Source of the DNA: a virus
Virus record (IMG/VR): IMGVR_UViG_3300037185_000024
Location: 1 to 21,565 of that record
DNA: 21,565 nucleotides
Strand: one strand, 5' to 3'
The notes under the pieces were generated by a model, which worked only from the letters and a program-made list of their open reading frames with translations, did no database searches and was not told the origin of the DNA. The translations under genes were made by a program, and so were the position numbers. Shown piece by piece: positions 5,554-21,565 of the stretch. How positions within the stretch are numbered: position 1 is the stretch's first letter; each line of letters starts with the position of its first letter.

Positions 5554-6090
5554 TTACTTTCCGTTTATGTATTTGACCTTTTTGTTTGCATACCTATACC
5601 ACACTCTGAATGAATTTTTATTCGTTACATCTTCGTGGTAATAAAACACTATAGCGTCGGGATTGATTTTGTTCAATACTGCTTGAATTCTACTGTAACT
5701 TCCATAAGCAATTGGCATGTCGAATTCGAGGCCAAACAGTGACCATGTGGTAGAAGTTAGTTTAAATAAATGATAAAAAAGGCCAAGTGGATCTATGTTG
5801 TGGTATCTTAACGGGGGCTTTTGGTGTTTTCCATTTGCATCCTTATTCATTTCCACATACAATCTTGATTGCTTCTCAAAAAATAAACGAGAGTTGAATC
5901 TATAATCAAATACAAGTGGGGTTGCAGCAAGTTTAGCCGATTGTATGATGGATACAGAACCTATGACTATAGGCATATCCATTTTAGCATCAAATAAAGC
6001 ATACGAGCTATCACTAAGTTTAAAACTGTGATAATAAGTCGGTTTCGGTGTTTTTACATTTTGATTGTTGTTGACAATGATAGCAGGCAT
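5554..6090 (-). CDS. Hypothetical protein with an internal two-fold repeat
   Basis: No family recognised. The 178 residues contain two copies of one domain: residues 19-66 and 105-152 align along their length. Shared features are YH.FKL, then S.(Y/W).LF, then an invariant DMPI, then GS.S.IQ, and a hydrophobic strand before an aromatic pair. The pattern suggests a small beta-rich fold duplicated in tandem. There is no signal peptide or membrane segment. The start codon lies 14 bases from the start of the divergent gene at 6105; a TTATATTGTAATATG stretch precedes it. The -35 and spacer of that neighbour's promoter lie inside this gene's first codons, so the two divergent genes may influence each other. 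Confidence 0.7.
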   Translation of the reverse strand: MPAIIVNNNQNVKTPKPTYYHSFKLSDSSYALFDAKMDMPIVIGSVSIIQSAKLAATPLVFDYRFNSRLFFEKQSRLYVEMNKDANGKHQKPPLRYHNIDPLGLFYHLFKLTSTTWSLFGLEFDMPIAYGSYSRIQAVLNKINPDAIVFYYHEDVTNKNSFRVWYRYANKKVKYINGK

Positions 6091-6098
6091 ATTACAAT
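6071..6098 (+). promoter_or_regulatory. Sigma-70-type promoter for the DUF4338 gene at 6105
   Basis: A perfect TTGACA (6071-6076), a 16-base spacer and TACAAT (6093-6098, 5 of 6 matches). The expected transcription start is close to 6105, which is the A of the start codon, so the message may be leaderless. The -35 box and most of the spacer lie inside the divergent gene at 5554-6090. Confidence 0.65.
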
Positions 6099-6104
6099 AT
6101 AAGT

Positions 6105-7418
6105 ATGGATAAATATGATTTTATGGAAGGTAACGTTCATTCAGAGGAAGTTAAAAAGAAAGCTGATGAAGAACGAAAGAAGATGAATGAGACGAGTGGA
6201 AAGTATGCTAAGAATGATGCTTTCAAAGGCGTTTGGGGTATAGATAAATTTGATGTTGAAGTAAACAAAAAGAAATTGATTGATGACCTAAACTGGCTTG
6301 TTAAACTAGATGTTGAAGAATTCACGTTTCGCAAAAAATGGGAAGAAATGCAACTACTAAATGAGTATGTTACCGGATGGGATACTCAAGTTAAACCTAT
6401 GCTTTGGTCGCCTACGGACCTCAATGATGAAAGAGTGACTATCAAGGAGATTGAAAATCTTAAACCAAAAATGGTTCTTGCTGATGGTGATTTTCTTGAG
6501 AGGTTGTGGACTACTTTACGTTACTATTGCAGCAGTGCTGAATATAACCAAGCACCGGGTAGATTTTTCAAGTTCCTATTGATGGATGATGTTTCCGGCA
6601 AGATACTGGGAATATCTTCTGTGGCAAGTGATGTTATTTCAATTTCTGATAGAGACAAGTATATCGGATGGACTCCAGATGATAAACTCAAAAATAGAAT
6701 GTTAAAACATTCAGCTATAGGAACTACAATTGTTCCTACACAACCATTTGGAACTAATTTCCTTGGCGGAAAATTGATGGCTGCAATGGTCACTTCTGGC
6801 GTAGTTAGAAATTCATGGGAAACCACAAGCGGTGAAGGTATAGCTTGTAGATTGGTAGGCATGACCACCACAAGTCTTTACGGTAATTCCAAAGGAAACT
6901 TCTCCATGTATAATGGTATGAAGTGGTGGAAACCTGTAGGATTGTCTAAGGGTAAGGTACCTATAAAACCTTATGAAGAAAGCTATCAAGATTGGCACCA
7001 ATGGTTGAAAGAGAATAAGAAAGAAGATTATGACAAGGCCATGACTCAAAAAGAAGGCGTCAAAGGACCTGTTACAGGTGCTAAAATGAGGGTATTGAAC
7101 ATGATATTCAATGCCTGCAATATTAAGCAATCTGATTTTTGTCACGGGTACGCACGAGGAATATATTACGCAGAATTTTATGAAAATACCAAAGATTTTC
7201 TTTGTAGGAAAATAACCGAAGATAAATTGATTATGAAACCATTGTTTAAGGGAGACGTATATGAAATATTGAAATGGTGGAAACCAAAAGCCATTTCTCG
7301 TTATTTGAGACTTAAGAGTGAAAATAGATTAAATCCAAAAAAATTGTTTTATAGTGAAATGACAGGAATGCCTTATGAGGAAGCTAAAAATAAATTTTTT
7401 GGTGATGTTGGCAGATGA
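6105..7418 (+). CDS. DUF4338 (DruA-like) protein, 437 residues
   Basis: The central part (about 150-300) has the features of DUF4338, the family of the DruA protein of Druantia anti-phage systems: KFLLMDD..GKILGI, RDKYIGW (183-189), a run ending in LVGMTTTSLYG (250-260) and SMYNGMKWW (267-275). The second DUF4338 gene in this window (11267-12010) has the matching RDTFIGW, LETFVEP and CVYKASNW. The first 100 residues are charged and helical; the C-terminal 130 residues are unassigned. A biochemical function for phage-encoded DUF4338 proteins is not known to me. The start has no Shine-Dalgarno sequence and sits at the predicted transcription start; M7 (6123) is an alternative. The last 46 bases overlap the convergent endonuclease gene. 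Confidence 0.65.
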   Translation: MDKYDFMEGNVHSEEVKKKADEERKKMNETSGKYAKNDAFKGVWGIDKFDVEVNKKKLIDDLNWLVKLDVEEFTFRKKWEEMQLLNEYVTGWDTQVKPMLWSPTDLNDERVTIKEIENLKPKMVLADGDFLERLWTTLRYYCSSAEYNQAPGRFFKFLLMDDVSGKILGISSVASDVISISDRDKYIGWTPDDKLKNRMLKHSAIGTTIVPTQPFGTNFLGGKLMAAMVTSGVVRNSWETTSGEGIACRLVGMTTTSLYGNSKGNFSMYNGMKWWKPVGLSKGKVPIKPYEESYQDWHQWLKENKKEDYDKAMTQKEGVKGPVTGAKMRVLNMIFNACNIKQSDFCHGYARGIYYAEFYENTKDFLCRKITEDKLIMKPLFKGDVYEILKWWKPKAISRYLRLKSENRLNPKKLFYSEMTGMPYEEAKNKFFGDVGR

Positions 7419-8212
7419 TATTCATTTAATGTTTGTGTTATTGAGTTAAACCTATAAAATTTACATTGTAGATGGTTCATAATTCTATTCATTCTTTTTA
7501 CATCATTTTGTTTTAGATTTCCAAATTTATCATAATGTCTCGATTCATCATATTCCACTACAACATTTTTTTCTTTATCATAACCATCTAACCAATATCC
7601 TATTACATCAATTTCTCCGCCGTTCATAGCATGTTGAAGATTCCAATTGTTTTGCTTATTTAGTTGGTCAAAATATTTACATGCTTTGGTACTAAAATTT
7701 CCTTTGTAATATAATCCTAAACTTTTTAATCTTTTAACATGAGACATTCTAATTTTGAGTTTATGGTCCTCTGTAAATTTTTTTCCATAATTTCCACCAT
7801 TGATGCTGCCATTTTTTTCTTTAAGTATTAGTTTCGTTTGTATAGTATGTTTTTTTCCATAAAATGGATTTAATGCTCCTGTTTTTCCATACATAGGATT
7901 CTTTTTACCACTAAATGCTTCACTCATCTTTTCTTTCCATCCCGGTTTTGTTATTGAATAATGATTTTCTCCTGACATATAGCTGTAATCTCTTGATTTT
8001 TTCCATATATTTTTCGTTTTTTCTGTATGATGCTTTCCAAAAAATGGATTGTTTTTTCCAGATACATCTGCGTGGTTTAATTTTATTCCACAACTCAAGC
8101 ATAATTTTTTTATTTTTTCAGCACGATTTCTGTTTTTGATGTTGGTATGAAATATATTCTTGCCACAAGAGGGGCAAACCCGCTTATATGGTTTCGTATT
8201 ATTGTCAGTCAT
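7373..8212 (-). CDS. Homing endonuclease: zinc ribbon, NUMOD3 repeats, EDxHD-type nuclease
   Basis: About 279 residues, numbered here from the ATG at 8218. A zinc ribbon has two Cys pairs (CPSC 15-18, CLSC 40-43). NUMOD3-type DNA-binding motifs follow (GKNNPFFGKHH, GKKNPMYGK, NPFYGKKH). The C-terminal nuclease domain (178-260) includes AMNGGEI, GYWLDGYD, VVVEYDESRHY and the QNDVKR helix, matching the EDxHD homing nucleases related to Vsr-type folds. The start 8212 (MTDNN) is preferred over 8218 because the sequence at 8218 belongs to a TTATATTTATGG element that is not a start elsewhere, and because this puts the upstream element 30 bases away as in its relatives. The gene lies alone between DUF4338 and a broken gene, as expected of a selfish insertion, and overlaps the DUF4338 3' end by 46 bases. 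Confidence 0.85.
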   Translation of the reverse strand: MTDNNTKPYKRVCPSCGKNIFHTNIKNRNRAEKIKKLCLSCGIKLNHADVSGKNNPFFGKHHTEKTKNIWKKSRDYSYMSGENHYSITKPGWKEKMSEAFSGKKNPMYGKTGALNPFYGKKHTIQTKLILKEKNGSINGGNYGKKFTEDHKLKIRMSHVKRLKSLGLYYKGNFSTKACKYFDQLNKQNNWNLQHAMNGGEIDVIGYWLDGYDKEKNVVVEYDESRHYDKFGNLKQNDVKRMNRIMNHLQCKFYRFNSITQTLNEYHLPTSPKNLFLASS

Positions 8213-8250
8213 ATCCATAAATATAAACCAACCATCAAAAACAATTAAAA
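8213..8250 (-). promoter_or_regulatory. Conserved upstream element of endonuclease genes (copy D, weaker)
   Basis: Minus strand: GTTTTTGAT begins 30 bases before the start at 8212, followed by TTATATTTATGG next to the start. The spacing matches copies at 671-710, 10461-10499 and 15622-15665, but only the GTTTT core and the AT-rich part are shared. Confidence 0.3.
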
Positions 8251-9777: not shown

Positions 9778-10456
9778 GCCAGTGCTCATAGGAATAGGCG
9801 GGTTTGCGCAGTCGGGAAAAGATACCTTCGTAAAAATTGCCAAGAAACAACTCAAAGAACACGGTTATAGTTCGATTAGATTAGCGTTCGCTGACGCTCT
9901 TAAAGAGGAATTGGACCCTTTTACCACAAAACAATATGGTATCAGTTCTTGGACTAATGATATAGAAGAAAAAAAGTTGATACGAAGGGCTATGGTGTCT
10001 CATGGATGTATTATGAGGGATATTAATCCCGGTTATTGGATTAATAAAATAGACCGGTTGATAGAGAATGTTCATTTTAACGAAGATGTAATTTTTATAA
10101 GTGATTGTAGATTTCCAAACGAAGTTGATTGGGTTCATGAGAAATGGGGTGGGTGGTTTGTCCATCTTAGCAAATACTCCGTTAAAAGTGGGATGCAATA
10201 CGACTCTTTTACTGGTGAACAGACCGAAAACAGAGAATGGAAACAATACGACGATGCTCCAAACGAAGAAGAAGCCAAAAATGACCCGATGTGTGCTCAG
10301 AAAGCCGATTACCGATTGGAAATGGAAAACGCTATTGAAAGAGAACTTCGATTAACAGGGAATAAAATTACAGTAGAGTCTTTGATAGACAATACTTATC
10401 TGAACAAAGAGATAAGTGTATGTCTGTCCAAGTGTCCTTTTTTGATGCTGAAGTAA
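9761..10456 (+). CDS. Deoxynucleoside monophosphate kinase (T4 gp1-like)
   Basis: 231 residues. The P-loop GFAQSGKDT is at residues 14-22, followed by RLAFADALKEEL. The conserved INPGYWINKI segment and a strand VIFISDCRFPNEVDWV match the nucleotide-binding and lid regions of T4 gene 1 kinase (241 residues). The enzyme phosphorylates dNMPs, including modified ones in some phages, to supply the phage replisome. The start at 9761 (MRESNK) is chosen because the P-loop then lies at the normal distance from the N-terminus, and AAAGG lies 9 bases upstream. The in-frame ATG at 9713 would add 16 residues read from the nuclease gene. The start overlaps the preceding nuclease gene. Confidence 0.85.
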   Translation: MRESNKPVLIGIGGFAQSGKDTFVKIAKKQLKEHGYSSIRLAFADALKEELDPFTTKQYGISSWTNDIEEKKLIRRAMVSHGCIMRDINPGYWINKIDRLIENVHFNEDVIFISDCRFPNEVDWVHEKWGGWFVHLSKYSVKSGMQYDSFTGEQTENREWKQYDDAPNEEEAKNDPMCAQKADYRLEMENAIERELRLTGNKITVESLIDNTYLNKEISVCLSKCPFLMLK

Positions 10457-10499: not shown

Positions 10500-10661
10500 A
10501 TGGGAAGATATAGAAAATATCTAACTGATGAAGAAAAGAAAAACGCCAAAAAAAGGTGGGACCATGAATACTATATGCGAAATAAAAAACGAATTGACAG
10601 ACAGGCCAAAAAAAGATACAAAAGTAAACAGAGTAATTTACAAAATAACAAATCTAGTTAA
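10500..10661 (+). CDS. MGR-type basic N-terminal module, out of frame with the GIY-YIG nuclease
   Basis: A 53-residue frame beginning MGRYRKYLTDEEKK, with EYY at 23-25 and KKRYK at 37-41. It aligns with the first 45 residues of the endonuclease gene at 670 and with the fragment at 15621 (MGR, then a YY near 22-25, then R/KYK or YW.KK). It therefore looks like the true N-terminus of the following nuclease. The frame stops at 10659-10661. The GIY-YIG frame lies one base ahead, and removing one A from the A7 run at 10608-10614 would fuse the two. It could be a separate peptide, the first part of a frameshifted protein, or a sequence error. Confidence 0.5.
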   Translation: MGRYRKYLTDEEKKNAKKRWDHEYYMRNKKRIDRQAKKRYKSKQSNLQNNKSS

Positions 10662-12274: not shown

Positions 12275-12642
12275 GATATGTTCACAAGTTTTGTTATCAC
12301 ACCATAAATAAATAATGACAGGATACACAAAGGCGGAACTAATAACATCGTCAACGGTTGAAAAGTCAATATAGATAGTGTTGTCAAGAACGCAACAGAA
12401 AGCCAAAAAGACACACAAAGAGGACACCCTACCAGTTTTGTAAGGAAACTTGGATATTTCATTTTCAGGAACGTAGGATAATTCAACATCGCGGGTAGGA
12501 AGTTTACCCTTTCATTAAGATACTCTCCTTCCTTAATCAGTTTGTGTAACCCAAACGTGCTGCCCCAATCTACTACGAAGTCTGTTTTAAACCAGACTAA
12601 CATCATAAGGACGATAACTGTTGCTAGATATAATAGAATCAT
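12271..12642 (-). CDS. DUF1360-like small membrane protein
   Basis: 123 residues with hydrophobic segments at about 2-17, 78-95 and 98-117. The motif GCPLCVSFW (72-80) opens the second segment, as in DUF1360-type integral membrane proteins, which occur in phages and bacteria without a known function. The loop between (20-70) is polar and contains DFVVDWG and YPSFLTKL. The ATG overlaps the stop of the glycosyltransferase gene by ATGA and its own stop overlaps the next start, so it is translationally coupled on both sides. Confidence 0.6.
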   Translation of the reverse strand: MILLYLATVIVLMMLVWFKTDFVVDWGSTFGLHKLIKEGEYLNERVNFLPAMLNYPTFLKMKYPSFLTKLVGCPLCVSFWLSVAFLTTLSILTFQPLTMLLVPPLCILSLFIYGVITKLVNIS

Positions 12643-13907
12643 ATTTTGTCTTTTGTTCTCTCATAAATAGTAAACAATTCGTTTGTGCAGTAAGGATCTG
12701 TGGGTGAAAATGGACGTAGTTGATTAGTATAATACGGATCATCATTCTTGACAAGTTTTTCAGAATAATCAGTCATTGCCTGAATCTGTATTTTGAAAAT
12801 GTCAAATTCCATTGGTCCAATTTCTCCACTATCAGAAATGATTTTTGGAAGTTTTGATAGAAATTGCCATCCTTCGTTTGTTAGGTTGGAAACATCGAAT
12901 GTGACAATGATATCATTGGTTGGAAAATAAGTATCAGACCTTTTGACTCTCTTTTTAAGGTCAAATGGGGTGCTTACCTGAACTTGTTGAATGTATCCAT
13001 CTGTGTTACAATCACAATAAATTGTTGAACACCAAGGTTCAAGATTGCCTATTTGTTCTGGTTGACAATTCTTTGCTACAAATCCAATGTCGTATTTTTT
13101 CTGAATAATAGGATAGCAGTTTTCGTCGTTTTCCACCCACGAACCCCACTTACGAATAAAGTGTGAGACATTCTTTGCACAACACAGTTTGTAGAAAAAA
13201 TCATCCTGCTGGACTTTTTTCGTCCAACGATGTCCTCTACAGGTAAAGTGGTAAACGAAGGCGTCTCTACTTTGGTTGATTTCATAATGAGCTAGTATCA
13301 TTCTCTGAAAGATATCACTATCTTCATATGGAAATGGACTAAAGAGTTTATCGTGACCGCCTATGGCCAGAAAATCCTTCTTATAGATAAGCCACGGTGC
13401 GAAAATCCCCCGTGTTATTATATTTTGGTTTTTTATATCTTTTTGTAATTTTTCACAATAATTTCTAAAATCTATTTCTTTAAAATCTGTATTATAGATA
13501 CCAAAATCTTTTATTATTTTTTCTTTTCCTTCTGGATGTAAAGGTGGTTCTATTCTTGTTGCCGCTACTATTCCGCCGGGATGAAGCCATTTTAATAAGT
13601 TTTCTACAAAATTTGGTCCACATACCATATCCGCGTGAAATATACAAAAAATTTCATTTGATGACATTTCTACTCCTTTATCGTATAAAACGGTGTGTCC
13701 TAACTGACAACCATCATTTTTATAATAAATTGTATTTGAATCGTTATCCATTGATAGAGTGTTTGCCCATTCTAATGTTCCGTCAGTAGAGTTATCATCT
13801 AAAATTATAATTTCATGTTTTTTATAATAATCTCTTATACTTTTATATGCTAATTTTAAATAGGATAGGTTATTTCGTGTAGGAATAATAAATGTAATAG
13901 GTGTCAT
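12639..13907 (-). CDS. Family 2 glycosyltransferase with C-terminal extension
   Basis: 422 residues. The GT-A fold starts with TFIIPTRNNLSYLKLAYKSI, then LDDNSTDGT (36-44), the DxD-like HADM (91-94) that would bind metal and the nucleotide sugar, and YEDSDIF (194-200) with the likely catalytic acidic residue. The C-terminal part (about 225-422) is unassigned and has several cysteines. It resembles the enzyme at 19335-20231 in the first 200 residues. The ATG overlaps the stop of an endonuclease remnant (ATGA). Base composition changes abruptly near 13405: the row 13441-13500 has 9 G+C in 60 and the row 13201-13260 has 27. The 5' third may therefore have another history. Probable role: sugar transfer during glycan decoration. 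Confidence 0.85.
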   Translation of the reverse strand: MTPITFIIPTRNNLSYLKLAYKSIRDYYKKHEIIILDDNSTDGTLEWANTLSMDNDSNTIYYKNDGCQLGHTVLYDKGVEMSSNEIFCIFHADMVCGPNFVENLLKWLHPGGIVAATRIEPPLHPEGKEKIIKDFGIYNTDFKEIDFRNYCEKLQKDIKNQNIITRGIFAPWLIYKKDFLAIGGHDKLFSPFPYEDSDIFQRMILAHYEINQSRDAFVYHFTCRGHRWTKKVQQDDFFYKLCCAKNVSHFIRKWGSWVENDENCYPIIQKKYDIGFVAKNCQPEQIGNLEPWCSTIYCDCNTDGYIQQVQVSTPFDLKKRVKRSDTYFPTNDIIVTFDVSNLTNEGWQFLSKLPKIISDSGEIGPMEFDIFKIQIQAMTDYSEKLVKNDDPYYTNQLRPFSPTDPYCTNELFTIYERTKDKI

Positions 13908-14077
13908 AATGTTTCTATTTTTTTGTTAAGAGAATTATAAACAAAAAATTTACATTGTAAATGACTTTTTATTTCATTAACTCTGTTTTTATCTTTTTTG
14001 TTTAGTTGTCCATCTAATTTATAGTGATGTGGCTCATTGTATTCTATTACAACATTTTTCTTTTCATATTTTCTATC
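13904..14077 (-). pseudogene. C-terminal remnant of an EDxHD homing endonuclease, cut off by a tnpB element
   Basis: The minus-strand frame from the tnpB element's left end to TGA 13904-13906 encodes 57 residues. NVVIEYNEPHHY, LNKKDKNRVNEI and HLQCKF match the end of the endonuclease at 7373-8212 (NVVVEYDESRHY, LKQNDVKRMNRI, HLQCKF). There is no start codon with a credible context. It is the 3' part of the gene whose 5' part lies at 15344-15621. The segment with the catalytic glutamate is absent from both pieces, so a deletion accompanied or followed the insertion. The stop overlaps the glycosyltransferase start. Confidence 0.75.
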
Positions 14078-14120
14078 GTTGCGGAAACCCCTATCCCTTT
14101 AGGGTAGGGGAGGAGCAACG
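14077..14120 (+). repeat. Left-end hairpin of the tnpB element
   Basis: Outer stem CGTTGC (14077-14082) with GCAACG (14115-14120); inner stem CCCCTA + CCC (14088-14097, one bulged T) with GGG + TAGGGG (14102-14110); loop TTTA. The apex CCCTTTAGGG is repeated exactly in the right-end hairpin. Subterminal imperfect hairpins without terminal inverted repeats are the mark of IS200/IS605 elements. Confidence 0.75.
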
Positions 14121-14192
14121 ACATCCTTTCTGTAAAATATATTGACTTTCTTTGATTGTTTTGATACTCTCACTATATGTATTACTGAAACA

Positions 14193-15326
14193 ATGAAAAC
14201 ATACAATATCAAGTTGATTTTTGAGAAAGATGAGGACAAACAATCTCTCATCAACTCACTCGCCTTGAAGCGTGATGCTTTCAACGTCATATCCATTATC
14301 CGCTTTGGAATGAAGACCTGTAATGGCATTATGCCTCTTCACCAACGCTCCTACGACTTGGTTCGTAAGCAGTTCCCCGCCCTTCCCAGCCAGTTCGTAA
14401 TCAAGGCAGAGCAAGACGTAATCTCCAAGTATAAGACCATCCGTGCCAATCACCACAAGATTGAGGAACCAGTCAAAACTAATCGTCTCAATATCCAACT
14501 TGATAAACGTATCTATACTTGGATTGGACAAGACGCCATCAAACTCACCACGATGGATGGACGTATCACTGCCAAACTCTCCAAGTATGATAAGGTCAAT
14601 GAACTCTTTGAGAAGTTCCCGCTCCAAGACCCATCGCTCTTTGTGAGAGATACTGATGTCTTTCTGTCAGTTGTGTTTGACGATACAACCAAACCACTCA
14701 ACGGAACCAAGACCATCGGTATAGATTTAGGTCTCAAGCGTCTCATTGCTACGAGTGAAGGAAACATCGTCAAAGGAAACGACTTCAATAAGCATAAGCG
14801 AAAGATACGTTGGAACAAACGCAAACTTCAAGGCAAACTTTCTCACTCTGCCCGAACCAAACTCAAAACGTTGAGACGCAGAGAATACCATTTCTCAAAG
14901 AACTACACACACCACATTGTCAATGACCTATTGACAACTTCCGCAAACATACTGGTCTTGGAAGACCTTTCCAAAATCAAGTCCAAATCCAAAGGAAAGC
15001 GGTTCAACAACCGATTATCCCAAGTCCCATTTTTCACGCTCAAAACCATATTGACCTACAAGGCACTCGCTCTCGGTAAGAGAGTGGAAGTCGTTTGTCC
15101 TCACTACACCAGCCAACTTGACTATCGGGGTCTTGACAATGGCAGTCGTAAAGGATGTAGGTATTATGCCATTGACGGAAAAGTATTAGACGCAGACCTA
15201 AACGCATCTAATAACATTGGACTTCGGTATAACAAACACTCCATTACGTGCTCCGCACTTGATGGACAGGTGAAAGTCAAATCACCAATCGTCTCTGTCA
15301 GTCAGAGGCAAGCACCGACCCTTTAG
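14193..15326 (+). CDS. tnpB: TnpB RNA-guided nuclease (IS200/IS605 family)
   Basis: 377 residues, a normal length. RuvC residues are present: D178 in IGIDLG, E257 in LVLEDL and D335 in DADLNASNNIG. The zinc-ribbon cysteines between TSQ and the last motif are replaced (TSQLDYRG ... GCRYYAIDG), as in a known subgroup of these proteins. TnpB proteins are ancestors of Cas12 and cut DNA next to a target motif, guided by an RNA made from the element's right end; this helps keep the element in place. Start ATG 14193 (MKTYNIKL) is preferred to the upstream TTG at 14142, which adds 17 unlike residues. The stop lies inside the right-end hairpin. The gene appears intact. Confidence 0.93.
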   Translation: MKTYNIKLIFEKDEDKQSLINSLALKRDAFNVISIIRFGMKTCNGIMPLHQRSYDLVRKQFPALPSQFVIKAEQDVISKYKTIRANHHKIEEPVKTNRLNIQLDKRIYTWIGQDAIKLTTMDGRITAKLSKYDKVNELFEKFPLQDPSLFVRDTDVFLSVVFDDTTKPLNGTKTIGIDLGLKRLIATSEGNIVKGNDFNKHKRKIRWNKRKLQGKLSHSARTKLKTLRRREYHFSKNYTHHIVNDLLTTSANILVLEDLSKIKSKSKGKRFNNRLSQVPFFTLKTILTYKALALGKRVEVVCPHYTSQLDYRGLDNGSRKGCRYYAIDGKVLDADLNASNNIGLRYNKHSITCSALDGQVKVKSPIVSVSQRQAPTL

Positions 15327-15331
15327 GGTCG
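15316..15331 (+). repeat. Right-end hairpin of the tnpB element
   Basis: Stem CGACCC with GGGTCG around loop TTTA; it contains the tnpB stop codon and shares CCCTTTAGGG with the left hairpin. In characterised relatives the guide RNA ends at this end and its guide matches the next genomic bases, here starting near 15344. Confidence 0.7.
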
Positions 15332-15343
15332 TGTGTATTTGAC

Positions 15344-15621
15344 TACAGTTCAAACAACTCCTATATTCTCCTTTTAATTGAGAATCGTCTTTACATTTAC
15401 GACATATGATATTTTTATTTTGGGATTGGTTCCTATTCTTTTTATTTTTATGATAAACTAATCCATTACATTTCGGACATATTCTCACCCATTTCTTTTT
15501 TTCTCCAATAATAGTCCATGTTTCGCTTATTGATGCGTTTTTTATGTTTTTGATAATACCTGTTTTGTCTAATTCTTCGTTTTTCATCTTTTTCTTTTTT
15601 TGATTTAGATTTTCTTCCCAT
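15344..15621 (-). pseudogene. N-terminal remnant of a homing endonuclease, cut by the tnpB element and frameshifted
   Basis: From ATG 15621 a 51-residue frame encodes an MGR module (MGRKSKSKKEK, RYY at 21-23, YYWRKK at 37-42) and stops at 15466-15468. A frame one base ahead then encodes a zinc ribbon, WVRICPKC.....HKNKKNRNQ...ICRKC, resembling that of the endonuclease at 7373-8212 (RVCPSC...HTNIKNRN...LCLSC), and a YRSCLNC segment that runs into the tnpB element. Removing one A from the A7 run (T run 15496-15502 on the plus strand) would join the frames. The zinc-ribbon frame has an ATG of its own (MKNEEL), so it could be read separately. The remainder of the gene is at 13904-14077. Confidence 0.7.
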
Positions 15622-15665
15622 AACAATAAATATAACGTAGAATGATAAAACGTAGAAAAATATTA
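15622..15665 (-). promoter_or_regulatory. Conserved upstream element of endonuclease genes (copy C)
   Basis: Minus strand: ACGTTTTAT with its GTTTTAT beginning 30 bases before the ATG at 15621, then TTCTACG and TTATATTTATTG next to the start. It matches the elements at 671-710 and 10461-10499, here with a three-base insertion (GTTTTATCATTC against GTTTTATTC). Confidence 0.45.
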
Positions 15666-15694
15666 ACTATTTCTTGTTGGTATTATAAACGATA

Positions 15695-16393
15695 TCATAG
15701 TTGTTTTTTTATGAACCAATGAACGCCATTTGGATGTATTTTGAATTGTTCTTCTAGTTTGTTTTCTTCTACAAAAGTAAGAACAGCACTCCTGACACCT
15801 GCCCAAGTCCAATCGTCACCAAACATTACACCACCTGTCTTGACCAAAGGCCAATATTCTTTGCAATCATAATATACATCAATATCTTCGTGTGAGGCAT
15901 CAATGTATATAAGGTCAGCTTCTACTTTGACCTTATTTTTTATCTTATTTCTTAAAATTAAAGAACCTAATTTAGATGTTTTTACTAACGGTATAATATT
16001 TTTTTCCAGTTTGTTTTCTATTACATTTTTAACAAATTGATGATAAATGGTTGGATAACCATTAACTTGCCAAGAACATTCTTCTGGTGGTTCTGTATCT
16101 CTTTCAACCCACCCATAATCATCACCTGATAACCACATATCAACACAAATAATTCTAAAATCTTTTCCTAATGATTGAGCAGCCTTTCCCATTATAACTG
16201 CTGAATAACCAAGGAATGACCCAATTTCTATTATGAGACTGGGATTGATTTGGTTTACTAAATTGGTGAGAATGTCTGGTACAGGCATACTGCCGGGCCT
16301 AAGATAGTATTTGTATTTCTCAACAGGAAAGTTTTCGTAATAAGGCTTTCGGTTGAGTATGCTATCCAGTATTTTTAGGTCTTTTTCTTCCAT
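15695..16393 (-). CDS. Class I SAM-dependent methyltransferase (Methyltransf_24-like)
   Basis: 232 residues. Motif I is IIEIGSFLGYSAV (54-66); an acidic residue ends the second strand (CVDMW, D85); YIDASHE (163-169) and MFGDDW (190-195) form the metal- and substrate-site pattern of small-molecule O-methyltransferases. The likely role is methylation of a sugar in the glycan made by its neighbours. Start ATG 16393 is chosen because AAGGAAAG lies 8 bases upstream and it sits one base after the previous stop; the longer frame to 16483 would run inside the previous gene. It is the last cassette gene before the endonuclease/tnpB insertion. Part of the gene (around 15900-16020) is more AT-rich than the rest. 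Confidence 0.85.
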   Translation of the reverse strand: MEEKDLKILDSILNRKPYYENFPVEKYKYYLRPGSMPVPDILTNLVNQINPSLIIEIGSFLGYSAVIMGKAAQSLGKDFRIICVDMWLSGDDYGWVERDTEPPEECSWQVNGYPTIYHQFVKNVIENKLEKNIIPLVKTSKLGSLILRNKIKNKVKVEADLIYIDASHEDIDVYYDCKEYWPLVKTGGVMFGDDWTWAGVRSAVLTFVEENKLEEQFKIHPNGVHWFIKKQL

Positions 16394-16394
16394 A

Positions 16395-17303
16395 TTAAAT
16401 CTTTCCTTGTATTCTATCAGCTTTACACTGTTCGGCAAATTTTTGTATTTCTTGGTTGTAGAACGCAGCAGCATTGTCTGCAAACTGTTTCTTTCTTCCT
16501 ACACAGAACGGGATGTAATCTTTGTAAGCATTATGAAGTTCAAATTTGTAACTCTGTGTAACAACCAAATTCTTTACCAAATACTGTTGAACATCAACAC
16601 CCATCTGGTTCATTATTCTACAAGCATCCATTAGAAATGTGTCATCAAATCCGTAAGGGCCGAAAGCGTCTGGAACGCCTACATATGCTAGTAAGTCAGA
16701 AGAAATTAGATTGAACCATCCACCACCCATCTTGAAGACGGGCATCACCGCAACTGAAATTTCACCGTAGTCTTTTGTGAATACTTCAAATTGGTCGTAT
16801 GACAAATCATTGCTAAATTGTTTGTAGTGATCATTGACCAATACATCCCAAGAATTATCCCACAACCAAGTGCATTGTGGTGAAATGATGTAGTATTTCT
16901 TCTTAATCATTTTAGCCGCTTCCATGATGTATTTCAACGTGGTGTTAGGATAAAACATATCGTTATCAAGATAGAGAAAGTTATCACACGCAGAAGAATA
17001 CTTTTTGATAGAGTTTCTTCGTTTATCATCTATACCCAAGCACTTGTTATCACTATCAACATCAAAGATTGGATTAGCCCATTCTGCTACTTGTTTTACT
17101 TTTTCAAACCTATCAATGAAATAGTTTTTATGAATTTCAGCTATACCCCAATCTGTAAGTTCACCGTTAACATTAAGAGTAGCATCTATTACTATTTCAT
17201 CGGTTTTGTCTAGGTATGCACTATTTTTTCGTAGTTCAAACATTTGGTGTTCAAATCTATCAATTTCATATGGTAATACGTGGATTATTATATGTGTCTT
17301 CAT
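16395..17303 (-). CDS. Putative GT-A type glycosyltransferase
   Basis: 302 residues. A strand THIIIHVLPYEIDRFE opens the protein, and FLYLDNDMFYP (109-119) gives a DxD motif at the end of a strand, as in GT-A enzymes. GGGWFNLIS and FGPYGFDDTFLMDA supply the later acidic motif expected near the acceptor site. The exact family is unknown to me. It starts 6 bases after the upstream methyltransferase stop (17310) and ends one base before the next methyltransferase start, so it is an internal operon gene. Function by analogy: transfer of a sugar in glycan assembly. Confidence 0.65.
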   Translation of the reverse strand: MKTHIIIHVLPYEIDRFEHQMFELRKNSAYLDKTDEIVIDATLNVNGELTDWGIAEIHKNYFIDRFEKVKQVAEWANPIFDVDSDNKCLGIDDKRRNSIKKYSSACDNFLYLDNDMFYPNTTLKYIMEAAKMIKKKYYIISPQCTWLWDNSWDVLVNDHYKQFSNDLSYDQFEVFTKDYGEISVAVMPVFKMGGGWFNLISSDLLAYVGVPDAFGPYGFDDTFLMDACRIMNQMGVDVQQYLVKNLVVTQSYKFELHNAYKDYIPFCVGRKKQFADNAAAFYNQEIQKFAEQCKADRIQGKI

Positions 17304-17309
17304 AATTAT

Positions 17310-17942
17310 TTAGTTTAATGATTTATTCCATTTCTTGATTACAACAAGGCTACGATAAAATGTTATACTCTCAATCCACTTTTCAGTATATGATAGTGGC
17401 ATATTAACAACGCCAGCAAAGCCATCAAAAGTTTTTCCATGTAACATTACTTCATCAATTAAAATTTTTGTAAAATCTATACCTGTCTGATTGCCTACGT
17501 TCCAAGTATGCGTTGTATAGCTGGTGTGCATATCTTCAATGAAGTAAAGTCCACCGGGTGCCAATAACTGAAAGGCTACAAGGAAAGTATCTATTTGATG
17601 CTTCCATACATGACTGCCATCGTCAATAATAACAGTCAATGGATTGTTTTCGTCAGCAATTTTCTCAAGTAAATCTTGGTCTGTCTGAGAACCGATATAA
17701 ACTTTCTTCCTACCGCCTTCATATTTGGCACATTTAGGGTTTATATCAAGACCGATAATATTTGCTTTTGGAAAGTATTCTTCCCAAAGACGCAGAGAGA
17801 TACCTAGTTGAACGCCAATCTCAAGTAAGTTTATTGATTTGTCTCTAAGAGGCGAAAGGTATCTATCGTAAATCGGAATGTAGTCCTGCCCAAGCTTTTC
17901 ACAATTACCAATATCAATTGCTAATTCTACTAGTGTTTTCAT
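17310..17942 (-). CDS. SAM-dependent methyltransferase, macrocin O-methyltransferase (MycE)-like
   Basis: 210 residues. NLLEIGVQLGISLRLWEEYFP (39-58 region) is motif I plus the following helix, GLDINP (64-69) the second strand, VIIDDGSHVWKHQI (104-117) the DDGSH metal/catalytic block, and GGLYFIEDMHTSY (130-142) the later acidic strand. This set is characteristic of the MycE/CmcI-type sugar O-methyltransferases. In context it would methylate a hydroxyl of a glycan sugar. The ATG overlaps the stop of the fucosyltransferase gene by ATGA, so the two are translationally coupled. Confidence 0.85.
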   Translation of the reverse strand: MKTLVELAIDIGNCEKLGQDYIPIYDRYLSPLRDKSINLLEIGVQLGISLRLWEEYFPKANIIGLDINPKCAKYEGGRKKVYIGSQTDQDLLEKIADENNPLTVIIDDGSHVWKHQIDTFLVAFQLLAPGGLYFIEDMHTSYTTHTWNVGNQTGIDFTKILIDEVMLHGKTFDGFAGVVNMPLSYTEKWIESITFYRSLVVIKKWNKSLN

Positions 17943-18712
17943 ACTATTTCTACTTTATGTTTGTGTATCGTCCATTCTGGTAGATACAATCCGCTTACAT
18001 CATGGTCTTGTTTTGCTGGGCCAAACCAAGGGTCAGGAATTATTACAGTTCCTTGATTATTGTTCATATATGCACCCCACCAAGAAAATGTTGAATTAGC
18101 CAATACTAAATGTTTCATTTTGGTCATTAGATAGAGTTGAACGAACTTATCTTCGTCAACAAAAATTGCTTGTCCTTCAAACATACTTTTACAAGAAAAG
18201 TCGTCGGAGAAAATAAAAATTTGTTCTATATCTGGTATATGTTCCCAAGCAGTATAGTAATATTCATGAGATAATACACAATGATTGTTTTGTAACATTA
18301 GATAATCGCCTCTTCTAACACATATACCAACACTGTTGGGTGATATTACATATTTAAATGCTTTCGATACAATTTCATCGGTAAATTTGAAATATGTGTT
18401 GATCAACTCACTTCTTATATTATGGAAGTATTTGTAGTTCTGAAAGAATCCGTGTAGTTCTTGATTATCCACCAATGGTATAGGTGAATAAGTTCCAAAT
18501 TTCTTTTCGTTATATTTGTTTGGTAAACTTACGTCTTTTTTCTTGAAAGGATAGGAGAACCCTTCTAACTCCATAGGTATATTACCACGATGCCCCGCAT
18601 ACGCATAGGTAGGGACAACAAACTCCGTACCAACAGCCCTAGCAACATTAATCGCGGTGGCTATTTGATACAAATGATTTCCAAGTCTTCCGTTGCATGT
18701 GCAAGCTATCAT
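17939..18712 (-). CDS. Alpha-1,2-fucosyltransferase-like glycosyltransferase (GT11)
   Basis: 257 residues, slightly short for the family (about 280-300). All main GT11 blocks are visible: NGRLGNHLYQ (7-16), LHGFFQNYKYF (86-96), ICVRRGDYL (130-138), FIFSDD (166-171) and LANSTFSWWGAYM (204-216). The HxRRGD-like block binds GDP-fucose; here the histidine position is C131. The enzyme adds L-fucose, usually alpha-1,2, to a terminal sugar. No GDP-fucose synthesis gene is in the window, so the donor must come from the host or genes elsewhere. It overlaps both neighbours by ATGA and is part of the coupled cassette. Confidence 0.9.
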   Translation of the reverse strand: MIACTCNGRLGNHLYQIATAINVARAVGTEFVVPTYAYAGHRGNIPMELEGFSYPFKKKDVSLPNKYNEKKFGTYSPIPLVDNQELHGFFQNYKYFHNIRSELINTYFKFTDEIVSKAFKYVISPNSVGICVRRGDYLMLQNNHCVLSHEYYYTAWEHIPDIEQIFIFSDDFSCKSMFEGQAIFVDEDKFVQLYLMTKMKHLVLANSTFSWWGAYMNNNQGTVIIPDPWFGPAKQDHDVSGLYLPEWTIHKHKVEIV

Positions 18713-19356
18713 AACTGATATAACAAAATGTCTATAAATTGGTCGGTAGAAACTAGGTTCAATACTTCTGATATCCTAAGAGCAAACTCTGGGTATTTTA
18801 TGTCTAATGGAGCTTTCAGAGTCTCTTGTTGGCCCTTCATTACTATACCTACTCCCCAATCTGTATCTACTGTAAACATAGATAAGTCTGACCTAGTAAT
18901 TCGAAAATGTGCAAAGGCTCTCCATACATCACCATTCCAAGCCCGTTGAAATCCAAAATTTTTCTTCTTGGGTCCATTAGGCCAGTGTTCAGGGTCGGTT
19001 ATGTCATAATCTTCAACGTCCTGATGTAATTCTGTTGGTGGATTACAGTCGTGCATAATAACTACGCCACCATCATTAACGTGGTCTAATGAATTGTTAA
19101 CGTCTTTGATTACTTGTTGACTTAGATGCAATCCATCAATAAAAATTATGTCATATTTTTGGTCTTTTGATATTGTCTTGAAAAAGTCATCGGAAGTTAA
19201 TTTATAAGTAGCATTCCAATTTGGTGCTGGGTCAATAGACACTCTATTTGGAATTTGAATTCTTGCAAAATTAGTTCCACCCTCTAATCCTATTTCTGCA
19301 TAGGATTGGGCATTCATTTTCAACGCTAGTAAATTTATGATTTCTGTTCTGAGCAT
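18709..19356 (-). CDS. Class I SAM-dependent methyltransferase
   Basis: 215 residues. Motif I YAEIGLEGGTNF (19-30), the second strand ending VSIDPAP (39-45), DIIFIDGLHLSQQV (69-82) and VVIMHDCNP (98-106) give the Methyltransf_24-like order with a D/H-rich site. The C-terminal half contains WNGDVWRAFAHF and a short domain without assigned role. It is different in sequence from the other two methyltransferases here. The start lies 22 bases inside the upstream glycosyltransferase gene and the stop overlaps the fucosyltransferase start by ATGA. Confidence 0.82.
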   Translation of the reverse strand: MLRTEIINLLALKMNAQSYAEIGLEGGTNFARIQIPNRVSIDPAPNWNATYKLTSDDFFKTISKDQKYDIIFIDGLHLSQQVIKDVNNSLDHVNDGGVVIMHDCNPPTELHQDVEDYDITDPEHWPNGPKKKNFGFQRAWNGDVWRAFAHFRITRSDLSMFTVDTDWGVGIVMKGQQETLKAPLDIKYPEFALRISEVLNLVSTDQFIDILLYQL

Positions 19357-20231
19357 AACCTTATTAAGTGTTTGTATTTTTCTTTGTCAATGTTTGGCGG
19401 ATATGTTACAAACTGATATTGGTTGTGAGTAGGCATGAACCCCCATTTTTTGAAAAATCTTTCCGCTCCTCTTTGTTCATACATCTTTGACCTTTCGGAC
19501 CTTACGATTTCATCTGTAGGGAAGTTACTCTTGTCTGAACGACTGCCAAAGTGGAATACAACGGAATTAGAAGTCATGACAAACTTGAAACCTGCTAATT
19601 GCATACGAATGAACAAGTCACTATCTTCCCAGTATGCTGGTGCGAATATGGGGTCGTTGCCGCCAATATAATCCCAATCAGATTTACGAATAAGACCTGA
19701 TACGCCTTCTCCCTTTTCAACTTCTACATTTGGATTTAGTTTGGAGAATGCCTCAGCATATTCAATGAAATATGGTTCATTGAAATCTTTGTATGTATGG
19801 CCGAATTCTTCATAGGGGAATACTATCGTGCCGGGCCTTGACTCTTCTTTGAATAGGTTGGGTTGAAATCTTTGTGAACTAACCCACATAGCTTGACTCT
19901 TTCCATCAAAAACTTTCAATGCTTCCCAATCCCAATTTTTAGAAACGAACATGTCGGCGTGAAGGAACATGATAAATTCTGTTTCTACTCTCTTAGCACA
20001 GAAATTCATGCCTCCACCAATACCATTTGTATGTTCTTCATCGTTTTCTTGTGTATAAACCTTGAATTTGTATTTTAGATAGTTTTCTTTCAACCATTCA
20101 TCTGTTCCATCGGTACAATTTTCTGAATAAACAATAAAGGGTGCATCTTTATAGTATGAATAATCTCTAACAGAACGAATTGCTAACTTGAGATAATTCA
20201 AGTTGTTACACGTTCCTATACAAAATGTCAT
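19335..20231 (-). CDS. Family 2 glycosyltransferase
   Basis: About 298 residues. TFCIGTCNNLNYLKLAIRSV opens the GT-A fold, ENCTDGTDEW is the sugar-nucleotide loop, FLHADMF holds the DxD-like metal site and YWEDSDLF the catalytic-region acid. The segment GEGVSGLIRKSDW precedes the acceptor side. It shares this order with the enzyme at 12639-13907 but lacks the long C-terminal extension. Start 20231 is chosen because GGAAAG lies four bases upstream. ATG 20243 is also in frame, four codons earlier, three bases after the previous stop, but without a ribosome-binding site. Confidence 0.85.
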   Translation of the reverse strand: MTFCIGTCNNLNYLKLAIRSVRDYSYYKDAPFIVYSENCTDGTDEWLKENYLKYKFKVYTQENDEEHTNGIGGGMNFCAKRVETEFIMFLHADMFVSKNWDWEALKVFDGKSQAMWVSSQRFQPNLFKEESRPGTIVFPYEEFGHTYKDFNEPYFIEYAEAFSKLNPNVEVEKGEGVSGLIRKSDWDYIGGNDPIFAPAYWEDSDLFIRMQLAGFKFVMTSNSVVFHFGSRSDKSNFPTDEIVRSERSKMYEQRGAERFFKKWGFMPTHNQYQFVTYPPNIDKEKYKHLIRLCSEQKS

Positions 20232-20245
20232 TGGGCTTTCCATAT

Positions 20246-21055
20246 TTAGTATTTATGTGGTAAATGTGAGGATGATTGCATCACTACACCAAGGTAATTC
20301 TTGGACCAGTGTTCCAGTGTATATCCCCTTGATTTGAAATCATTATATTCTTGTAAATAGTGAAAGAACTTGAACAATGGTTCTATAGGCATAAGTGGTA
20401 TAGTTTTGTCTGTTAACAACCATTCACCATACCAAGTAAATTCACTATGCACCTGATTCACAAGGTCTGCAAATTTTAGTCCATTAGGTTTGAGATATTT
20501 TTCATCTAACGAAGACCAGACAGCATTAGACCATACAATGGGGCCGGGGCCAAAATCATACAAACGACCAGACCTATCGAAAAGAGTTTGAATAGGCAAT
20601 CTACATTCAGCAAATGACACTTGTGGGTCAAATCCCAGAACATCTATGTTCCTTGCTGTCCAAGAAAACAAATCTTTTTGTTCGTGCATTACAGTATATG
20701 GAATGTGATTATTTTCATCAAATATAAAATCTTTCAAATAAAATGGTCGGATAAAGTATGAATCAGAATCAATCATGACGTAGTTGTGACATAATCCTAA
20801 TTTCCAGAAACTTGATTTGATTGTTTGTTGTGTTACCCATGATTGTGCAAGTTTTTCTCCAAGAACGTCTTCATCAAGAACTAATGTGTAGTTGTTGGTT
20901 CCCAATACGTCTTTGAACAATTGAATATCCTCTTTTGGGACAGAGATATAAAAAGGAATATTGTCCTTATTGAACGAAACTACTGATTGCAGTAGAATTT
21001 TCGCCCTATCAACATCTTTGTTGTAGGATTTACAATATAGAATTAGTTCGTTCAT
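20246..21055 (-). CDS. DUF6492-like putative glycosyltransferase
   Basis: 269 residues. The beginning (LILYCKSYNKDVDRAKILLQ, then FNKDNIPFYISVP) and MIDSDSYFIRPF (94-105), with its DSDSY metal-type motif, fit the DUF6492 group of GT-A-like proteins from glycan clusters. The later GPGPIVWSNAVW and WYGEWLL blocks are typical acceptor-side segments. The activity has not been established in families I can name. The ATG overlaps the stop of the partial gene at 21052 by ATGA, and the next gene follows after a few bases, so it is coupled within the cassette. Confidence 0.65.
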   Translation of the reverse strand: MNELILYCKSYNKDVDRAKILLQSVVSFNKDNIPFYISVPKEDIQLFKDVLGTNNYTLVLDEDVLGEKLAQSWVTQQTIKSSFWKLGLCHNYVMIDSDSYFIRPFYLKDFIFDENNHIPYTVMHEQKDLFSWTARNIDVLGFDPQVSFAECRLPIQTLFDRSGRLYDFGPGPIVWSNAVWSSLDEKYLKPNGLKFADLVNQVHSEFTWYGEWLLTDKTIPLMPIEPLFKFFHYLQEYNDFKSRGYTLEHWSKNYLGVVMQSSSHLPHKY

Positions 21056-21565
21056 GATATAATTTCCTTAGCAACTGATTCTGTGGTCAATTTGTCTCTC
21101 GTCCAGTCTAAAAGCAGATTAACACATTCTTCATAGAAAGACAAGTCCTCTCCTTTTTTTATTTTCTCACATGCTTCCATGACCAATTTTTTAGGAAATC
21201 TGGTCATTGTATATTCTGGGCATTGAGGTAAATCTGGAAAGAATGGAATGCATCCATTCATTAGAATTTCATAATGTCTAAGACAATCCCATCCACCTTT
21301 TTTACAAGTTACTCCAAAATAGGAGTTTTTATAGTCTTCGTAGTAGGAATTTTCTTCTGTATAGATGTAGGTGGACTTATCGCCGGGTATGATTGTGGCC
21401 CAATCTTTGGTCTTGGTAGGCACTTTATCAACTATGAGTTCTTTCGGTATGCAGAAATTCAGTGGTTTTACGAAATTCCTTGTAGGAAATACCAACTCAC
21501 GTTTGTAATAAGGATAGGCGCCTATCTCTTCTATTTTCTGGTCATCTTCACCGTTGATTAGGATT
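21052..21565 (-). CDS. Glycosyltransferase-like protein, C-terminal part (5' end outside window)
   Basis: The frame is open from the right edge to the stop at 21052, giving 170 residues without their N-terminus; no start is assigned. The block YFGVTCKKGGWDCLRHYEIL followed by NGCIPFFPDL is the pattern of the C-terminal nucleotide-sugar domain in exostosin-like and group-1-like glycosyltransferases, in which a glutamate contacts the donor. The last 40 residues are helical (EACEKIKKGEDLSFYEECVNLLLDW). It is the first visible gene of the minus-strand cassette, whose promoter must lie further right. Confidence 0.6.
   Translation of the reverse strand, partial: ILINGEDDQKIEEIGAYPYYKRELVFPTRNFVKPLNFCIPKELIVDKVPTKTKDWATIIPGDKSTYIYTEENSYYEDYKNSYFGVTCKKGGWDCLRHYEILMNGCIPFFPDLPQCPEYTMTRFPKKLVMEACEKIKKGEDLSFYEECVNLLLDWTRDKLTTESVAKEIIS

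What the first reader, a model, noticed from the sequence alone, without database searches (positions are those of the whole stretch)
13904..15621. TnpB element nested in a homing endonuclease inside a phage glycosylation operon
Two minus-strand fragments of one homing endonuclease (zinc-ribbon N-part at 15344-15621, EDxHD C-part at 13904-14077) flank an intact tnpB with hairpin ends in the opposite orientation. One selfish nuclease has displaced another inside a coupled glycan operon. The middle of the endonuclease, with its catalytic glutamate region, is missing, so insertion came with a deletion or replacement. This may be competition between an RNA-guided and a protein-guided selfish element at one site.
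Basis: partly seen in the sequence, partly recalled or inferred. Interest (0 to 1): 0.65.

Follow-up and report, generated by a model that had tools for sequence, protein, structure and literature searches.

The report
Transposon wrecked a phage homing endonuclease
In this phage a small jumping gene that carries an RNA-guided DNA cutter (TnpB) sits inside, and has deleted the core of, another selfish DNA-cutting gene (a homing endonuclease), with both breaks lying exactly at the jumping gene's own ends, which shows how such elements destroy one another in large phage genomes.

Summary
A 1,276-bp IS200/IS605-family element (14068-15343, + strand) carries an intact-looking tnpB and no tnpA. It splits a minus-strand homing endonuclease gene (HEG): N-part 15344-15587, C-part 13904-14067. 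Sixteen related copies in other phage contigs fix the ends. Every left hairpin lies 3' of TTCAT (21/21; background 6.6%), every right end found is TTGAC, and TTCAT is depleted inside the elements (8 seen, 48 expected). Intact relatives encode both HEG fragments in one ORF. About 121-161 residues are missing, including the invariant GYxxDxY, and both breaks coincide with the IS ends. An invariant Asp has also become Asn, so the nuclease is dead. IS605 insertion deletes nothing, so insertion alone cannot explain this. Both breaks fit TTCAT sites, and intact relatives carry TTCAT at matching positions. I favour an adjacent deletion by transposase TnpA; recombination between two IS copies is the main rival. 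A sister element shows a deletion exactly between a TTCAT and an internal TTGAC. 'Competition' is a possible consequence, not a demonstrated cause: only 2 of 17 paired copies touch a HEG. No empty site or intact allele was found. In passing: two huge-phage IS605s carry an HNH endonuclease, and many HEGs here overlap a ~50-aa ORF in the +1 frame.

The parts
13904..14067 (-). C-terminal remnant of the homing endonuclease (EKKNVVIEYNEPHHY...ETL*); stop TGA 13904-13906 overlaps the glycosyltransferase ATG at 13907 (ATGA overlap)
   Evidence: sequence read; invariant EYDE is EYNE here
14063..14067 (+). TTCAT, inferred target / left cleavage site / TAM
   Evidence: 21 of 21 LE hairpins of the family have TTCAT upstream, background 6.6%
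14068..14122 (+). IS left end with hairpin 14088-14110 (outer GTTGC/GCAAC pairing 14078-14119)
   Evidence: compensatory changes at 4 pairs, covariation score reached by 0/500 shuffles
14193..15326 (+). tnpB, 377 aa, RuvC triad present; lacks the canonical zinc-ribbon cysteine pairs
   Evidence: ATG position from homologues
15283..15343 (+). IS right end, hairpin 15316-15331, ends TTGAC 15339-15343; overlaps the 3' end of tnpB (predicted end of the omega-RNA scaffold)
15344..15363 (+). predicted omega-RNA guide = HEG zinc-ribbon sequence TACAGTTCAAACAACTCCTA
   Evidence: inference from IS605 biology (PMC8612924); only the same insertion found in IMG/VR
15344..15587 (-). N-terminal remnant of the homing endonuclease: zinc ribbon 1 and first CxxC of ribbon 2 (...GEYRSCLNC)
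   Evidence: E=2.4e-11 to an intact HEG in G013
15466..15621 (-). small basic ORF (MGRKSKSKK...MSEM*, 51 aa) overlapping the HEG start; HEG frame is +1 to it
7373..8218 (-). intact paralogous homing endonuclease (281 aa, NUMOD3)
   Evidence: (72% DNA identity over 13945-14068)
12639..13907 (-). glycosyltransferase family 2 gene next to the HEG 3' end
15695..16393 (-). methyltransferase gene upstream of the HEG

Best explanation
It is a tnpA-less copy of a phage-borne IS200/IS605 element that inserted 3' of a TTCAT site in a free-standing homing endonuclease gene, probably moved by TnpA in trans (a full tnpA+tnpB copy exists in a related contig). The HEG core was then lost in an element-mediated step that left both IS ends intact: most likely an adjacent deletion in which TnpA joined the right end (TTGAC|) to a second TTCAT| site upstream in the HEG, releasing the segment between. 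The result is a dead endonuclease and a TnpB whose predicted guide is the HEG zinc-ribbon sequence, so a working TnpB would cut HEG-intact alleles at that site and be copied into them, replacing the HEG by homing of its own. Shown: element ends, one-ORF origin of the fragments, deletion coincident with the ends, no transposase gene in this copy. Inferred: TnpA in trans, the deletion chemistry, TnpB activity, homing.
For: Family ends TTCAT|...TTGAC| across copies in 15 contigs; in G002 the joined flanks restore an open frame...EEWEETV|NEINNAPIG..., as expected for precise insertion; TTCAT depleted inside elements, 8 vs 48 expected. Full tnpA+tnpB copy in G001/L005. Fragments match single ORFs in G013, G004 and G002; 121, 161 and 156 residues missing. 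Both inferred target positions carry ATGAA (=TTCAT on the other strand) in intact relatives: L086 YDE (GAT GAA) and L078 CNE (AAT GAA, in ribbon 1). A sister copy (L070, G003) has a deletion from TTCAT| exactly to an internal TTGAC|, the joint TnpA would make with a false right end.
Against: No empty site or intact allele was found. One precedent is not many: three other truncated copies (L017, L060b, L067) break elsewhere. The lost segment is unseen, so the second TTCAT is inferred only from what relatives carry. TnpB activity, TAM and omega-RNA are untested.
Confidence: 0.72

Rival explanations
1. Two IS copies sat in direct orientation at two TTCAT sites of the same HEG (or of two neighbouring HEGs), and homologous recombination between them deleted the DNA in between, leaving one IS with a left flank from one site and a right flank from the other.
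For: Gives the same exact breaks. The huge phages of this group hold 6 to 11 TnpB matches each, and HEGs are plentiful in them.
Against: Needs two insertions in one gene (or in two genes); no tandem IS pair in one HEG was seen in the loci read.
Confidence: 0.3
2. The HEG had already lost its middle, and the IS later inserted precisely at that deletion junction.
For: The joined flanks are open and in frame: CLNC|NEKKNVV.
Against: The old junction would have to fall by chance at the base after a TTCAT; and since ATGAA read in the third frame gives a stop, the in-frame joint is roughly an even chance.
Confidence: 0.05
3. The fragments come from two unrelated genes and never formed one endonuclease.
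For: The best match of the N-part (G013) is not the best match of the C-part (G004, paralogue).
Against: Intact relatives encode both parts in one ORF in the same order, and both fragments lie on the same strand.
Confidence: 0.04
4. Adaptive competition: the IS preferentially targets HEGs, and TnpB drives HEG alleles out of the phage population.
For: The predicted guide lies in the HEG; TnpB can act as a gene drive in plasmids (PMC11870625); other IS/HEG contacts exist (L029 HEG 3' end; L017 NUMOD-like ORF; HNH cargo in L064/L069).
Against: Only 2 of 17 paired copies touch a HEG, HEGs are common in these genomes, and any insertion makes TnpB target its own empty site.
Confidence: 0.15

Closest known systems
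IS200/IS605 family, ISDra2 and IS608 (PMC8612924)
   Same: Divergent tnpA/tnpB in the full copy (G001), Y1 transposase (Pfam Y1_Tnp, NCBIfam transpos_IS200 for the L069 tnpA), hairpin ends, insertion 3' of a short target without duplication, tnpB 3' end running into the right end.
   Different: Inferred target TTCAT instead of TTGAT or TTAC; found here only in viral contigs (no RE match in 84,980 prokaryote species genomes); the TnpB lacks the usual zinc-ribbon cysteine pairs.
tnpB-only phage IS elements of Campylobacter phages CP220/CPt10 (ISCaje1-3, PMC2853527)
   Same: tnpB-only IS200/IS605 elements in virulent phages that also carry putative homing endonucleases.
   Different: No nesting in a homing endonuclease is described in the passages read.
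Free-standing phage homing endonucleases with NUMOD/zinc-ribbon DNA binding, such as EDxHD I-Bth0305I (PMC3943268)
   Same: Modular DNA-binding part plus a nuclease domain; the predicted fold of the paralogue's catalytic domain finds RAP-type mitoribosomal proteins, AbaSI and Vsr weakly.
   Different: I-Bth0305I was not among the 50 listed fold hits nor among the sequence hits; family membership open.
ShiLan-type out-of-frame HNH endonucleases (PMC11855218)
   Same: Phage homing nuclease read in another frame than an overlapping ORF.
   Different: There the other frame is the interrupted methylase gene; here it is a small conserved ORF that precedes several kinds of HEG.

Membership tests
IS200/IS605 insertion sequence | Y1 (HUH) transposase tnpA, or a tnpA-less derivative of such an element | tested here: met
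   Window copy has no tnpA; G001 copy (L005/L072) with 97% identical TnpB has one; the TnpA of the L069 copy matches Y1_Tnp and transpos_IS200
IS200/IS605 insertion sequence | Subterminal hairpins at both ends | tested here: met
   left hairpin supported by covariation
IS200/IS605 insertion sequence | Insertion 3' of a fixed short target, no target duplication | tested here: met
   21/21 TTCAT; G002 joined flanks restore an ORF with no duplication
RNA-guided TnpB | Sequence family and RuvC D/E/D | tested here: met
   NF040570 above cut-off; motifs GIDLG, LEDL, DADLNA; partial alignment to an IS605 OrfB-type structure
RNA-guided TnpB | omega-RNA-guided cleavage next to a TAM | not testable with these tools
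   No Rfam match in the window; the RE sequence is conserved
Homing endonuclease (free-standing) | Nuclease domain plus modular DNA-binding domains, scattered distribution in phages | tested here: met
   Paralogue has NUMOD3 and a weak PHROG homing-endonuclease match; relatives in many contigs
Homing endonuclease (free-standing) | Intact active site in this copy | tested here: not met
   Invariant GYxxDxY missing and EYDE changed to EYNE: pseudogene
EDxHD family | EDxHD catalytic fold of I-Bth0305I | tested here: inconclusive
   Paralogue domain model pLDDT 81; weak RAP/Vsr/AbaSI fold hits and weak PvuRts1I sequence hit; I-Bth0305I not listed

The most novel reading that the evidence does not exclude
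In these huge phages RNA-guided (IS605/TnpB) and protein-guided (HEG) selfish nucleases invade, disable and carry one another. TnpB re-guided by a HEG target actively converts HEG-carrying alleles, and composite IS605s carry an HNH endonuclease as mobile cargo whose stop overlaps the tnpB start.
Probability: 0.2. Interest if true: 0.65.

Novelty: new member of a known kind. Interest (0 to 1): 0.42.

Why it matters
The comparison gives a phage-borne IS605 family with a defined target (TTCAT) and right cleavage site (TTGAC), and two deletions whose ends lie at those sites. That makes it testable whether TnpA makes adjacent deletions and whether TnpB homes in phage crosses. It also shows one kind of selfish nuclease being destroyed by another, and the converse composite (HNH cargo within IS605), in phage genomes rich in both.

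Tried and rejected
Empty-site search: GT and MT proteins, N-part protein and right-flank DNA in IMG/VR gave only the identical contig, plus one distant GT (45%) in an unrelated neighbourhood; phage collection no match. Guide sequence sought behind TTCAT in all fetched loci: only two chance-level hits. TnpB in 84,980 genomes: none confirmed; RE pattern none. IS in a HEG-linked copy L017: the break there is not at TTCAT/TTGAC, so it is not used as a second case of the mechanism. 'EDxHD' could not be confirmed.

Full report
What is there. The window is an IMG/VR virus record. Between a glycosyltransferase gene (12639-13907, minus) and a methyltransferase gene (15695-16393, minus) lies a tnpB on the plus strand, flanked by two minus-strand pieces of a homing endonuclease gene (HEG). 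TnpB matches OrfB_IS605 and the Cas12f1-like TNB domain and passes the NCBIfam guided_TnpB cut-off; the three RuvC motifs are present. A second contig, 3300037108_000022, is 100% identical across the region and carries the same insertion.

Element ends. Protein and DNA-pattern searches of IMG/VR found related copies in other phage contigs. They include a full IS605 with divergent tnpA and tnpB (L005/L072, TnpB 97% identical), a tnpB-only copy (L006/L073, 95%), more distant copies in contigs of 300-370 kb, a 113-bp ORF-less copy (L020) and a 397-bp relic (L024). All 21 left-end hairpins have TTCAT within 34 bases upstream, against a background of 6.6%. All right ends found end in TTGAC (TTGAC was part of the search pattern, but the raw sequences show the same). 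TTCAT is depleted within the elements on the transposed strand (8 seen, 48 expected; other strand 33 vs 59). The left hairpin is supported by compensatory changes. In G002 the joined flanks restore an open frame with no duplication, a control for precise insertion. So the window element is 14068-15343.

The broken gene. Searching the same contigs for the N-part and for the intact paralogue (7373-8218) found a family of HEGs with one to three zinc ribbons, NUMOD3-like linkers and a shared C-terminal nuclease domain. The N-part aligns with ribbon 1 and the first CxxC of ribbon 2 of an intact ORF in G013 (E=2.4e-11). The C-part starts at the DExKN position and aligns with many intact ORFs (best 2.4e-14). 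121 residues are missing against G013, 156-161 against G002 and G004. The missing part holds the invariant GYxxDxY and the partly conserved GGE; in the C-part the invariant D of EYDE is N. The HEG is dead. The predicted structure of the paralogue's nuclease domain (pLDDT 81) and a profile search give weak RAP, Vsr, AbaSI and PvuRts1I resemblances, so a Vsr/PD-(D/E)XK-like fold is likely; the label EDxHD is unproven.

How it came about. IS605 insertion is without loss or duplication (PMC8612924), so insertion alone cannot explain a deletion bounded exactly by the element. The left break follows (G)AT GAA, the right break requires (A)AT GAA; both are TTCAT on the element's strand. Intact relatives carry this sequence at a corresponding position: GAT GAA in L086 (YDENKN) and AAT GAA after a ribbon CxxC in L078 (ribbon 1; its ribbon 2 has GGG AAA). 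Two routes fit: TnpA joins the right end to a second TTCAT| site in cis (adjacent deletion), or two IS copies recombine. A sister element (L070, G003) lacks its left end and most of tnpB, with TTCAT| joined directly to CTACAAGG, which in the window follows an internal TTGAC at 15051-15055. That is the joint TnpA would make with a false right end, and it favours the first route. Three other truncated copies do not show this. An old deletion that happened to be hit at its junction is unlikely.

What it would do. The predicted TnpB guide is the zinc-ribbon sequence right of the element; a HEG-intact allele would have TTCAT next to it. A working TnpB would therefore cut such alleles and be copied into them, as shown for TnpB-driven spread in plasmids (PMC11870625). 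This is inference. It is also what any IS605 insertion does at its own site, so it does not show that the IS seeks HEGs. Of 17 paired copies, 2 touch a HEG (the window, and L029, where the IS sits in the last codons of another HEG); several others sit directly at gene starts (ATGAA).

Novelty. tnpB-only IS200/IS605 elements in virulent phages with HEGs are known (PMC2853527); I found no description of one nested in a HEG among the papers searched, a limited library. I rate the finding a new member of a known kind.

In passing. Two copies in huge phages (L064, L069) carry, between tnpA and tnpB, an unknown gene and an HNH endonuclease gene (PHROG endonuclease VII / HNH) whose stop overlaps the tnpB start. 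They have different flanks, so the composite seems to move as a unit. Separately, a ~50-aa basic ORF ('MGR') precedes HEGs of several kinds in these contigs. Among 21 copies (1.29 Mb searched), 13 are overlapped by an ORF extending 150 or more codons beyond the MGR stop in the +1 frame, and the window's broken HEG is a 14th with a shorter extension; one has a long +2 ORF overlapping only its last codons, and one is fused in frame. The +1 frame is open across the whole module in 11 of 21, against 0.8 expected from codon permutation (copies are related, so this is not a clean probability). Overlapping genes or +1 frameshifting are both possible.

Noticed in passing
window 15466-15621 (-), 10500-10661 (+); L161, L071, L126, L172, L127, L129, L122, L123, L119, L116, L134, L154, L120: A ~50-aa basic ORF (MGRKRKYFTDEE...RRYYxRNKxRINxxRMxKYW) precedes different homing endonuclease types, whose ORF overlaps it in the +1 frame; 21 copies found, +1 frame open over the whole module in 11 (0.8 expected by codon permutation). 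In L119 and L122 the +1 ORF has no ATG before the GIY motif. Overlapping genes or +1 frameshifting.
   Followed up: partly
L069:4145-6828 (-), L064:4345-6934 (+): IS605 elements of 2.6-2.7 kb in two huge phages carry an HNH endonuclease gene and an unknown gene between tnpA and tnpB; the HNH stop overlaps the tnpB start; flanks differ, so the composite appears mobile.
   Followed up: partly
L070:10180-10540 (+), near 10230: Truncated IS605 copy with TTCAT joined directly to an internal tnpB position that follows TTGAC in intact copies; consistent with aberrant TnpA excision.
   Followed up: yes
L020:167-279 (+); L024:1483-1879 (+): ORF-less short relatives of the element (113 bp and 397 bp) that keep both ends; L025 holds the same site as L024 in another contig.
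   Followed up: partly
L022:6062-7334 (+): Copy flanked by sequence that also flanks the truncated copy of L070 (CTAAATT.TGTCAATTCAT left, CCCACCCGCTAAAGCAAGTGGGATTTCTTGCCAC right); it seems nested in another IS605-like element.
   Followed up: no
L029:518-1798 (+): IS copy inserted in the last codons of a homing endonuclease whose stop overlaps the start of a structural gene.
   Followed up: partly
L017:2585-10430: Terminase and portal ORFs with intein-like insertions; between them a solo IS right end beside a NUMOD-like ORF (5810-6139).
   Followed up: no
L060, L063, L064 (11226), L068, L072, L024: Several copies sit directly at gene starts, since TTCAT is the reverse complement of ATGAA.
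   Followed up: partly
window 12639-21565 (-): Cluster of glycosyltransferases (GT2, GT11, DUF6492) and methyltransferases; a sigma-70-like site (11 of 12) at 13961-13934 (-) precedes the last glycosyltransferase.
   Followed up: no
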